A DNA stretch of 64,000 nt from Streptomyces sp. SCUT-3. GTDB lineage: Bacteria > Actinomycetota > Actinomycetes > Streptomycetales > Streptomycetaceae. Below the pieces are notes generated by a model that saw only the letters and a program-made list of their open reading frames with translations, made no database searches and was not told the DNA's origin. The first letter of the stretch is position 1; each line of letters starts with the position of its first letter. The DNA is taken from assembly GCF_014083985.1 (NCBI RefSeq), contig NZ_CP046907.1, positions 2,832,001 through 2,896,000 on the forward strand. The letters run 5' to 3'. Shown in pieces: positions 54,783 through 59,856 of the stretch. Made by a program: the position numbers and the translations under genes.

Positions 54783-54840
54783 TTCCCGACCGGGTATCCG
54801 CTTCCGTAGGATGGTTTGCGGATGTTCGCAAGCGCAAACC
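54783..54840 (+). promoter_or_regulatory. Promoter and candidate autoregulatory operator of the HTH gene
   Basis: A possible promoter is TTCCCG (54783-54788), 18 bases, TAGGAT (54807-54812). Just after the -10 box lies TTTGC (54815-54819) and, one helical turn on, the 14-bp dyad TTCGC-AAGC-GCAAA (54825-54838). The outer GGTTTGCG/CGCAAACC (54813-54820 and 54833-54840) is an 8-bp inverted repeat as well. The same dyad class occurs at 59822-59856. Confidence 0.5.
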
Positions 54841-54880
54841 GGCGTGGCCGACCGCGCCGGGCCCGCATCGAGGAGCCCTC

Positions 54881-55423
54881 ATGGAATCGCCGACCACCGA
54901 TGCCGCCACCCGTGCCCGGGAGCTCCAGCGCAGCTGGTACGGAGAACCGCTGGGCGACCTCTTCCGCCGGCTCATCGCCGACCTCGGCCTCAACCAGGCC
55001 AAGCTCGCCGGCGTCCTGGGGCTGTCCGCCCCCATGCTGTCGCAGCTGATGAGCGGCAACCGGGCCAAGATCGGCAACCCGGCCGTCGTCCAGCGCCTCC
55101 AGGCGCTGCAGGACCTCGCCGCCCAGGTCTGCGACGGCAGCGCCACCGCCGCCGACGCCACCGCCCGCATGGACGAGATCCGCCAGTCGGCCGTCTCGGT
55201 GCTCAACCCCACCAGCAGCACCGCCGTCCCCAACGCCTCCCCGACACGCCGGGTCGTGCGCGAGATCCAGTTCCTCCTGCGCTCCCTGGCCTCGGCCCAG
55301 GAGCTGTTGAAGGCGGCAGACGCCCTCGCGGCGGACCATCACGAACTGGCAGAGTTCTTGCGTGTCTACGGTGCCGGTCGCACCGACGACGCGGTGGCCC
55401 ACTACGAGGCCCACCAGAGCTGA
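54881..55423 (+). CDS. Helix-turn-helix DNA-binding protein
   Basis: A 180-aa protein. The HTH is at about residues 22-65 (LFRRLIADLGLNQAKLAGVL, GLSAPMLSQLMSGNRAKIGN), a Cro/C1-like fold that differs from the DUF5753 class; the rest is helical (RRVVREIQFLLRSLASAQEL). ATG 54881 follows GGAGCCCTC. It precedes the kinase gene by 35 bases and is probably co-transcribed with it. TTYGC-N4-GCAAR dyads in front of it and in front of the facing operon suggest it controls both. Confidence 0.9.
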   Translation: MESPTTDAATRARELQRSWYGEPLGDLFRRLIADLGLNQAKLAGVLGLSAPMLSQLMSGNRAKIGNPAVVQRLQALQDLAAQVCDGSATAADATARMDEIRQSAVSVLNPTSSTAVPNASPTRRVVREIQFLLRSLASAQELLKAADALAADHHELAEFLRVYGAGRTDDAVAHYEAHQS

Positions 55424-55458
55424 CGGTTGCAGGCCAGATCAAGGGCGGTCACGGCAGG

Positions 55459-58429: not shown

Positions 58430-59799
58430 CTTCCGACTCCCGGGCCCTCGTACGCCGAACGCTGCCGCAGCGCGGCCAGCGCGGCGAAGGTCGCCAGTAC
58501 GAGACCGGCCGCACCGAGGGCGGCCGCCACGATCATGAATCCTCTCCCGGCGGAGGGCGCCGTGTCGCCCGCCTTCGCGGAATCGGCCTCCGGCGCGTCG
58601 GATCCCGCGGCGGCCGGCGCCCGCTGCTGCGGCCCGGCCAGCTCCTCCCCGAGCACGCTCACCCGCAGCACCACGGGCAGTGCGGCGGAGGTGCGCGGCT
58701 TCGCGCCGGGCTCCCAGGACACCGCGAGGTAGTAGTCGCCCGAGGACCTCACCGACGCCACCGACCGCTGCTCGTCCCACCGGTTGGCCCAGGCGACCGG
58801 CACCGTCCCGCCGGCGACGAGGACCCGGTCGTCCGGCTGCGCCCCCGGTCCCCGCGCCCCGGAGACCCGGGCCCGGCCCGGCGAGTAGACCGACGCGCGG
58901 ACCCGGGGGGACGCCGGGCGGTCCGGCCCCGCCGGTCCGCCGGACTCCACGGTGTAGCGCAGCCGCTGCCCCCAGCCCAGGCGGATCCGGTAGAAGCGGG
59001 TGCGGGCGGGGAGCACCTCGTCGCGCCACTCCCCCGGGCCGATCCTCCGGGCGTCGTTGAACCCGCTGCCGCCCCCGGCCGGCACCGCCGTCCCGCCGCG
59101 GGGACCGCCGGCCCTCCCGGGGCGGGAACCGCCGGGGCGGGGGCCGTCCTCCGGGCGGGGGCCGCCGTCGGGGCCGGACGCCGCCCTGTCCGGCCGTGCC
59201 CCCTCGGTTCCCATGCGCAGCTCCAGCGGCCAGCGGTCCCGGTCCGGGCCGTGCCCGGCGACGCGGGTGACGGACAGCAGGTACCGCCCCTTCCGGTCGC
59301 AGGTGGGGCTGTCGCCGGCCCCGGGGACCCGGCTGACGGCCGCGGTGAGCACCCCAACACCCTCGTCGCGCCCGAAGCGGGCGGCGGCGGTGCCGCAGGT
59401 GTAGGCGTACTCGTCGGCGCGGCGCAGCCGCAGGTCCAGGCCGTCGCCGGAGGCGACGGCGGAACCGGACCGGGGCACGGCGGTGGCGGACAGGTCGGCG
59501 GCCGAGGAGGCGTCCAGTTCGGCCGCGTACCAGCGGGTCTCCCCCGGGCCGATGGTGTCCAGGTACTGGCCGGGCCCGATCTCGGGGGCCTGCGAGCCGC
59601 GGCCGCCGCCGGCCACCTTCTCGCCCACGAAGCGGTAGGCGTGCCCGGTCACCGCCGGACCGCTCGCGGGGGCCGCCCGGACCGGGGTGTGCGGTGCCGC
59701 TCCCGACGCCCGCGCGGGGCCCGTGGCGGCGAGGGCCGCCCCGGCGAGCAGCACGCCCAGGACGGCGGTCGTCCCCGCACGTCGGCGTGGTCGGTGCAT
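58426..59799 (-). CDS. Exported membrane-anchored protein, paralogue 1
   Basis: A 457-aa protein: signal peptide (1-32, AVLGVLLAGAALAATGPARA), first beta half (EIGPGQYLDTIGPGETRWYA), a Gly/Arg/Pro linker, second half (RTRFYRIRLGWGQRLRYTVE), a transmembrane helix at about 418-441 (FMIVAAALGAAGLVLATFAA) and a short cytoplasmic tail. Same plan as the next gene, so the two arose by tandem duplication. ATG 59799 follows GGGAGGGG. The promoter upstream has two TTYGC-N4-GCAAR dyads. Function unknown. Confidence 0.85.
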   Translation of the reverse strand: MHRPRRRAGTTAVLGVLLAGAALAATGPARASGAAPHTPVRAAPASGPAVTGHAYRFVGEKVAGGGRGSQAPEIGPGQYLDTIGPGETRWYAAELDASSAADLSATAVPRSGSAVASGDGLDLRLRRADEYAYTCGTAAARFGRDEGVGVLTAAVSRVPGAGDSPTCDRKGRYLLSVTRVAGHGPDRDRWPLELRMGTEGARPDRAASGPDGGPRPEDGPRPGGSRPGRAGGPRGGTAVPAGGGSGFNDARRIGPGEWRDEVLPARTRFYRIRLGWGQRLRYTVESGGPAGPDRPASPRVRASVYSPGRARVSGARGPGAQPDDRVLVAGGTVPVAWANRWDEQRSVASVRSSGDYYLAVSWEPGAKPRTSAALPVVLRVSVLGEELAGPQQRAPAAAGSDAPEADSAKAGDTAPSAGRGFMIVAAALGAAGLVLATFAALAALRQRSAYEGPGVGR

Positions 59800-59821
59800 C
59801 GTCTGTTTCCCCTCCCTGGGC

Positions 59822-59856
59822 TTTGCTAAAGCAAGTTATAAATTTGCTGACGCAAA
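59822..59856 (-). promoter_or_regulatory. Promoter with two dyads of the exported-protein operon
   Basis: TTTGC-TGAC-GCAAA (59843-59856) and TTTGC-TAAA-GCAAG (59822-59835) are 14-bp dyads 21 bases apart, two turns of the helix. Between them, on the minus strand, is TATAAC (59835-59840), a good -10 box, so a bound repressor would cover the core promoter. The stretch is AT-rich against its surroundings. Confidence 0.6.

What the first reader, a model, noticed from the sequence alone, without database searches (positions are those of the whole stretch)
54815..59856. A shared 14-bp dyad at both ends of an HTH-kinase-exported-protein cassette
Seen: TTYGC-N4-GCAAR occurs as TTCGC-AAGC-GCAAA (54825-54838) at the HTH gene and as TTTGC-TGAC-GCAAA (59843-59856) and TTTGC-TAAA-GCAAG (59822-59835) at the facing operon. 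Each set lies at a plausible -10 box, and two are exactly two helical turns apart. Inference: the HTH protein represses itself (with the kinase) and the two exported proteins, making a self-contained signalling cassette of regulator, kinase and surface proteins.
Basis: partly seen in the sequence, partly recalled or inferred. Interest (0 to 1): 0.72.

Follow-up and report, generated by a model that had tools for sequence, protein, structure and literature searches.

The report
Self-repressing regulator, kinase, surface-protein cassette
Next to a DNA-binding protein and a probably membrane-tethered kinase, a Streptomyces-like bacterium carries short mirror-image DNA signals at two facing promoters, and the same signals recur at the same promoters in many related bacteria, which suggests an old switch that controls itself and a set of surface proteins.

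Summary
TTYGC-N4-GCRAA (up to 1 mismatch) lies just upstream of the HTH gene in 76 of 80 distinct regions (0.9% of shuffles) and upstream of the facing exported operon in 54 of 83 (3.4% of shuffles). The two-turn pair is itself conserved: 33 of 83 exported promoters hold two such dyads, always 21 or 22 bp apart, the upstream one filling the inferred -35/-10 spacer. In three other actinobacterial families, where the exported gene is divergent from the HTH gene, 8 of 9 loci fetched (of 13 matches) have at least one dyad upstream of the HTH gene and 7 have two or more. One HTH helix matches EspR of mycobacteria, whose published site is TTTGC[TC][GA]. Best reading: an autorepressor with a small local regulon. 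Limits: no binding experiment; 29 of 83 exported regions lack a close dyad; co-loss with the HTH gene is only weak evidence; the kinase's role is inferred. Six narrow paper searches showed no report of its operator or regulon.

The parts
54807..54812 (+). inferred -10 box TAGGAT of the HTH promoter
   Evidence: TAGGAT or TAAGAT precedes the dyad in most upstream regions printed (not counted); not found by the consensus scan
54815..54819 (+). additional half-site TTTGC upstream of the HTH dyad
   Evidence: sequence; a third half-site before the dyad is also seen in other lineages (by eye)
54825..54838 (.). predicted operator dyad TTCGC-AAGC-GCAAA of the HTH gene
   Evidence: a site with at most 1 mismatch in 76 of 80 distinct upstream regions
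54881..55423 (+). HTH regulator, 180 aa, HTH at residues about 17-80, Ser/Thr-rich low-confidence linker 105-120, helical C-terminal part; taken as orthologue of SCO3859 from gene order
55459..56772 (+). Ser/Thr protein kinase, 437 aa, one C-terminal hydrophobic segment (by eye); orthologue of SCO3860 by its tail
   Evidence: Pkinase 4.6e-37; tail resembles that printed for SCO3860
56837..58429 (-). exported protein 2, 530 aa: signal peptide (by eye), two PPC-like beta-sandwiches, C-terminal helix and low-complexity tail
58426..59799 (-). exported protein 1, 457 aa, similar architecture by sequence; lacks the N-terminal VWA domain carried by its counterpart in some relatives
59822..59835 (.). 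predicted downstream operator dyad of the exported operon (CTTGC-TTTA-GCAAA in promoter sense)
59835..59840 (-). inferred -10 box TATAAC of the exported operon
   Evidence: lies between the two conserved dyads
59843..59856 (.). predicted upstream operator dyad of the exported operon, the only perfect TTTGCN4GCAAA in the genome
59857..59862 (-). inferred -35 box CTTGAG, 16 bp from the -10 box; the upstream dyad sits in this spacer
   Evidence: CTTGAG-like sequence precedes the dyad in the promoter consensus

Best explanation
The HTH protein is a local repressor. It binds TTYGC half-sites arranged head to head with a 4-bp spacer. One such dyad (plus a third half-site) covers the start region of its own promoter, so it limits its own expression and, where they are co-transcribed, that of the kinase downstream. 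Two dyads 21 bp apart on the same face of the helix bracket the -10 box of the facing operon; occupied together they block RNA polymerase and keep two membrane-anchored, exported PPC-type proteins off. A signal, perhaps through the adjacent Ser/Thr kinase acting on the Ser/Thr-rich linker of the HTH protein, relieves repression. Shown: the dyads, their conservation, position and spacing, and their persistence through changed gene order. Inferred: the HTH protein as binder, repression, co-transcription of the kinase, and phosphorylation as the trigger.
For: HTH-side dyad in 76 of 80 and exported-side dyad in 54 of 83 distinct regions at up to 1 mismatch, against 0.9% and 3.4% of shuffles and 1.4% of 3526 other 320-nt windows of the same loci, none of which held a perfect site (the window's own regions are among those counted). 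Exact dyads: spacer 4 in 72 of 80 HTH regions and 16 of 83 exported regions, spacer 5 in none. Pairs with both dyads at up to 1 mismatch: 33 of 83 regions, spacing 21 (23) or 22 (10) and no other between 14 and 59; 46 of 83 at up to 2 mismatches against a shuffle mean of 0.1. Promoter consensus of the 12 regions with 22-bp spacing: TTGAgTTtGC-N4-GCAaATCAATA-N-CTTcGC-N4-GCAAA. Where a VWA gene or domain stands at the front of the operon (for example L039, L048, L127, L130) the dyads stand before that first gene. In other families with 41-48% identical HTH proteins and the exported gene divergent, 8 of 9 loci have a dyad within 300 bp upstream of the HTH gene and 7 have two or more. Of 61 family genomes, all 31 with an HTH match better than 1e-7 (one a remnant) also hold an exported match (tables compared by hand). 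HTH helix SAPMLSQLMSG-R against EspR SAPYLSQLRSG-R; EspR site TTTGC[TC][GA] (PMC3315491 passages). Linker Ser/Thr 45% against 11% elsewhere in 32 HTH proteins.
Against: No binding or expression data. 29 of 83 exported regions have no site with at most 1 mismatch and 15 have 3-4. HTH-side exceptions: 4 of 80. L177 shows no dyad, L176 only one. Co-loss is weak evidence: of two genomes (one genus) without an intact HTH gene, G008 has no dyad but G022 keeps one exported-side dyad with 1 mismatch, and exported-side dyads are also missing in many genomes that keep the HTH gene. Three genomes keep kinase and exported genes without an intact HTH gene. The HTH-kinase gap is 35 bp here but up to about 440 bp elsewhere (L102), so co-transcription is not certain. 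SCO3859 was captured on ssg promoters (PMC4457907 passages), hinting at more targets. In 8 Streptomyces genomes TTYGCN4GCRAA exceeds the reversed control in 6 (site list cut); the 11 sites in the 7 regions I looked at lie inside reading frames. Phosphorylation of the linker has no direct evidence. Confidence was lowered from 0.80 to 0.77 when the co-loss evidence was re-read.
Confidence: 0.77

Rival explanations
1. A different regulator encoded elsewhere, such as the Clp-gene activator ClgR, binds the dyads; the HTH gene is only one of its targets.
For: ClgR sites also contain TTCGC and GCG (PMC9775585 passage), and the HTH-side dyad of most Streptomyces loci is TTCGC-N4-GCGAA. Loss of the HTH gene is not cleanly matched by loss of the exported-side dyad: G022 keeps one.
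Against: The ClgR motifs GTTCGC-5N-GCG and WNNWMGCYNNNRGCGWWS (passages) need 5 bases between the GC cores; here exact dyads have 4 in 72 of 80 HTH regions and 5 in none. The dyads stay with this HTH gene and the exported gene through a changed gene order.
Confidence: 0.09
2. The HTH protein activates, or acts as a nucleoid-type bridging protein between the two promoters about 5 kb apart, like EspR looping, rather than as a plain repressor.
For: EspR-like HTH helix and half-site; EspR is thought to bridge distant sites (PMC3315491 passages).
Against: No genome-wide excess of dyads (single half-sites were not counted); dyads overlap the inferred core promoter, the usual place of repressors; in other families the two promoters are adjacent and divergent, so a 5-kb loop is not conserved.
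Confidence: 0.12
3. The HTH-side dyad is an RNA hairpin in the 5' leader rather than a protein-binding site.
For: In many Streptomyces it could pair as a stem of 5-7 bp with a 4-base loop (by eye).
Against: In 15 of 100 matched loci the pair is TTCGC/GCAAA, which breaks the stem, and no TTTGC/GCAAA compensation is in the list; the exported-side upstream dyad lies before the inferred start point and often ends in GCACA.
Confidence: 0.04

Closest known systems
EspR of Mycobacterium tuberculosis (PMC3315491, passages seen)
   Same: HTH helix SAP-LSQL-SG-R; half-site TTTGC[TC][GA], matched by TTTGCTA and TTTGCTG in the window; binds its own promoter; targets enriched for cell-wall and surface proteins.
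   Different: Sequence match covers only about 21 residues (E 0.38-0.59); EspR has hundreds of genome sites, here dyads show no genome-wide excess; no linked kinase is described in the passages seen; here close paired dyads.
ClgR/PopR (activators of clp genes; PMC9775585 and PMC2905415, passages seen)
   Same: Similar TTCGC half-site; C. glutamicum ClgR is among the structural matches of the HTH model (3f51, Z 6.7).
   Different: 5-base core spacing and activation of clp/lon genes; here 4-base spacing and a kinase/exported-protein cassette.
SCO3859-SCO3860 of Streptomyces coelicolor (PMC4457907 and PMC3087755, passages seen)
   Same: Same gene pair by gene order and kinase tail; SCO3859 captured on ssg promoter DNA; SCO3860 listed as a predicted tail-anchored kinase.
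   Different: No operator or regulon reported in the passages seen. The other paper that holds the tag SCO3859 (PMC9779433) uses it only as a primer name for another gene.

Membership tests
EspR | HTH helix SAP[YM]LSQL-SG-R (that it is the recognition helix is recalled and by position in the model) | tested here: met
EspR | binding consensus TTTGC[TC][GA] | tested here: met
   window exported dyads read TTTGCTA and TTTGCTG; the HTH-side dyad uses TTCGC. Sequence match only, no binding
EspR | full-length sequence homology | tested here: inconclusive
   profile search E 0.38-0.59, best stretch 21 residues, stretch E about 7
EspR | same three-dimensional fold incl. dimerisation domain | tested here: inconclusive
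   EspR not among the 50 listed structural matches of a pLDDT 74.6 model
EspR | hundreds of binding sites genome-wide (nucleoid-associated) | tested here: inconclusive
   dyads: 12 sites against 14 in control, no excess; single half-sites were not counted and binding was not measured
XRE-type HTH regulators | XRE/lambda-type helix-turn-helix domain | tested here: inconclusive
   many XRE-type domains match residues about 17-80, but Z is at most 7.7, middling, and the top rows are HNF-1A; Pfam HTH_31 1.1e-05, 26.1 bits against a cut-off of 27. I still read it as XRE-like
XRE-type HTH regulators | represses its own promoter | not testable with these tools
   operator position only
ClgR | operator with 5 bases between the cores | tested here: not met
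bacterial eukaryotic-type Ser/Thr kinases | protein kinase domain | tested here: met
   Pkinase 4.6e-37
tail-anchored kinases | single C-terminal membrane segment that anchors the kinase | not tested
   hydrophobic tail seen by eye, similar to the SCO3860 tail printed in PMC3087755; no predictor was run
PPC (pre-peptidase C-terminal) domain proteins | PPC beta-sandwich fold | tested here: met
   collagen-binding domain 3jqw Z 12.0, rmsd 2.3, 110 aligned, residues 57-196; a domain named PPC, 5sv5, Z 8.7
PPC (pre-peptidase C-terminal) domain proteins | Pfam sequence match | tested here: not met
   0 families for P0002 and P0003

The most novel reading that the evidence does not exclude
An ancient actinobacterial signalling module works like a two-component system made of other parts: a membrane-tethered eukaryotic-type kinase phosphorylates the Ser/Thr-rich linker of an EspR-like repressor, which releases paired TTYGC dyads and switches on VWA/PPC surface proteins that in turn sense or modify the cell surface. 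EspR of mycobacteria would use the same recognition code in a protein that became a global regulator.
Probability: 0.3. Interest if true: 0.72.

Novelty: new variant of a known kind. Interest (0 to 1): 0.52.

Why it matters
It gives a conserved, barely studied Streptomyces regulator (SCO3859 type) a precise predicted operator and a small regulon, ties it to a kinase and to exported proteins of unknown role, and makes the whole switch testable with one footprint and one deletion. It also suggests that the TTTGC recognition of mycobacterial EspR exists in a second actinobacterial regulator type.

Tried and rejected
Larger regulon: own-genome scans gave no excess. The contexts of all 12 other sites of those two lists (9, 3 more) were looked at. 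Some lie in coding sequence and some between genes (for example L112, L113, L121, L122); none has an evident link to the cassette, and their conservation was not tested. The best are a site about 18 bp upstream of an SMR-transporter-like pair divergent from a MarR-like gene (L112) and one upstream of a MarR-like gene (L113), which may be those MarR proteins' own operators (gene names by eye). A recurring pair of TTCGCN4GCGAA-like sites about 2.7 kb apart in several Streptomyces genomes, first noted as a possible target, lies inside reading frames, purF-like and valine-dehydrogenase-like by eye.

ClgR as binder: disfavoured on spacer length. RNA hairpin: disfavoured. Defence system: the PADLOC scan matched only the kinase (35 families, the best 25 shown), none for the other three proteins. 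EspR was not listed among the structural matches. The promoter/terminator scan found nothing. A third genome with an exported gene but no HTH match (G033, L124) could not be scored for exported-side dyads because its contig ends just beyond the exported gene; two weak exported-only matches (G017, G028) were not examined. A paper search by domain words listed nothing on this cassette (listing only).

Rows dropped: one search took 101 loci (80 named, 20 fetched, the window) and left out 16 that lacked an exported match or the small flanking gene in the fetched stretch; one search then dropped identical regions (85 to 83 exported, 84 to 80 HTH). The window is one of those counted. The 110 loci include the window's own locus and some assemblies twice. 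Of 13 matches outside the family I fetched 9. G049, with an HTH match at 7.8e-4, was not counted as having the HTH gene; G022, a remnant, was.

Full report
Observation. The three dyads are present at the stated places. In the window TTYGCN4GCAAR occurs nowhere else, and 0 of 100 shuffles reach the observed count. In the whole genome it gives 9 strand matches against 9 for the reversed pattern, and the related TTTGCN4GCAAA (at most 1 mismatch) 12 sites against 14; three sites in each list are these. So the motif is not enriched in the genome, but it is concentrated in this cassette.

Anatomy. The HTH gene (54881-55423, 180 aa) is followed after 35 bases by a Ser/Thr kinase (55459-56772) with one hydrophobic segment at its C-terminus (by eye). 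Facing them are two exported proteins (58426-59799 and 56837-58429, minus strand). Pfam gives Pkinase for the kinase (4.6e-37), a just-below-cut-off HTH_31 for the regulator (26.1 bits, cut-off 27) and nothing for the exported pair. AlphaFold of the second exported protein (mean pLDDT 74.1, mostly above 85 over the two domains) shows two beta-sandwiches and a C-terminal helix; the best structural matches are collagen-binding/PPC-type domains, 3jqw Z 12.0 over 110 residues, then the tandem 5iku Z 11.1. In some relatives the first exported protein also carries a VWA domain (Pfam VWA_2 1.8e-11 and 1.1e-08 in the two scanned; sequences); the window's copy lacks it.

Conservation at the HTH promoter. 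An exact TTYGCN4GCRAR lies within 130 bases upstream of the HTH match in 100 of 110 loci, 79 of 80 named ones. Most Streptomyces have TTCGC-N4-GCGAA; 15 of the 100 loci, like the window, have TTCGC-N4-GCAAA. In most it follows a TAGGAT or TAAGAT that I read as the -10 box. In loci of one more distant genus (L027-L029, about 50% identical HTH protein), scored as lacking, the same core appears as ATTGC-AATT-GCAAA, one mismatch (for two of those genomes). Over distinct regions, 76 of 80 have a site with at most 1 mismatch, against 0.9% of shuffles.

Conservation at the exported promoter. The 320 bases behind a conserved small gene (about 46 codons, minus strand, upstream of the exported operon) were taken as the promoter region. 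54 of 83 distinct regions have a site with at most 1 mismatch, against 3.4% of shuffles and 1.4% of 3526 other windows in the same loci; no other window had a perfect site. Pairs at 21 or 22 bp occur in 33 of 83 (both at most 1 mismatch) and 46 of 83 (at most 2), shuffle means 0.0 and 0.1; at the strict threshold no other spacing from 14 to 59 occurs. Aligned, these promoters read CTTGAG-like, dyad, an AT-rich -10-like stretch, dyad. Against this, 14 regions have a best site with 2 mismatches and 15 have 3 or 4, although most of them keep an exact HTH-side dyad: there the exported genes may have left the regulon.

Gene-order test. A class-wide search (296 genomes, 41 with a match) found HTH homologues in three further families, 13 genomes. 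I fetched 9 of the 13, from 5 genera. In 8 of 9 a dyad with at most 1 mismatch lies within 300 bases upstream of the HTH gene; in 7 of 9 there are two or more, at least one of them perfect. In the same 8 an exported-protein match lies on the other strand upstream of the HTH gene, and the long divergent frame carries a VWA signature in 6 of 9. One locus (L174) has a 22-bp pair and a third dyad nearer the HTH gene, the same design in another gene order. L177 has none, and L176 has a single 1-mismatch site.

Loss test. Of 61 family genomes, 31 have an HTH match better than 1e-7 (one of them a remnant) and all 31 have an exported-protein match; four have the exported match alone, one (G049) a doubtful HTH match alone (compared by hand). 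In G008 the HTH gene is gone and no dyad is found at either promoter. In its genus-mate G022 only a C-terminal remnant of the HTH gene is left; the exported promoter keeps one dyad with 1 mismatch and no recognisable partner at 21 or 22 bp. G033 could not be judged because the contig ends. Since 29 of 83 exported regions lack a close dyad anyway, this is weak evidence that the dyads depend on the HTH gene.

Who binds. The segment GLSAPMLSQLMSG-R is invariant in the 32 aligned proteins and largely kept in the more distant L027-L030. A profile of these proteins finds EspR in the PDB only weakly (E 0.38-0.59), but on exactly this helix; that it is the recognition helix is recalled and fits its place in the model. 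EspR's ChIP-derived consensus is TTTGC[TC][GA]; it binds its own promoter, where a zone with an inverted repeat of two motifs was protected (PMC3315491, passages). The window's exported dyads begin TTTGCTA and TTTGCTG. I therefore say that it works like EspR in half-site recognition; I do not file it as an EspR, since full-length homology and fold are unproven. ClgR needs one more base between the cores (PMC9775585 and PMC2905415, passages), whereas here exact dyads have 4.

How it works. Dyads over the start region and around the -10 box, two turns apart, fit steric repression by cooperatively bound dimers. The linker of the HTH protein has low confidence in the model and is Ser/Thr-rich, 45% against 11% elsewhere in 32 proteins, which makes it a candidate target of the adjacent kinase; this is inference. 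The persistence of kinase and exported genes without an intact HTH gene in three genomes says that the kinase has other work as well, and the HTH-kinase gap of up to about 440 bp in some Streptomyces leaves co-transcription open.

Known facts. By gene order and kinase tail the pair corresponds to SCO3859-SCO3860. SCO3859 was among ten proteins captured on ssg promoter DNA (PMC4457907, passages); SCO3860 is listed as a predicted tail-anchored kinase (PMC3087755, passages). Searches for locus tags and for domain words showed no paper on its operator or regulon; the library holds open-licence papers only.

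Noticed in passing
window 59950-60090 (minus strand): A small protein of about 46 residues (VKKLLLVVLAAVGGLLVYRQIQADRAEQDLWTEATDSV...) sits upstream of the exported operon and is strongly conserved (75-93% identical in three more loci); function unknown to me.
   Followed up: no
window 54658-54731 and 60206-60281: The cassette lies between a tRNA-Ala and a tRNA-Ile gene, both on the minus strand; the tRNA-Ala stands at the same place in the three loci without an intact HTH gene.
   Followed up: partly
L125 about 3360-3465 (oriented with the exported operon on the minus strand): The HTH gene of this relative is a decayed remnant in which only the C-terminal end is still recognisable, while the kinase and exported genes remain.
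   Followed up: yes
L112 position 1254: CTTGCGCGTGCAAA lies just upstream of an SMR-transporter-like pair, divergent from a MarR-like gene, in the window's genome (names by eye).
   Followed up: partly
L182 position 4318; L183 position 4557 (oriented with the HTH gene on the plus strand): In a distant genus single-mismatch dyads also lie just upstream of the kinase gene, which there stands before the HTH gene.
   Followed up: partly
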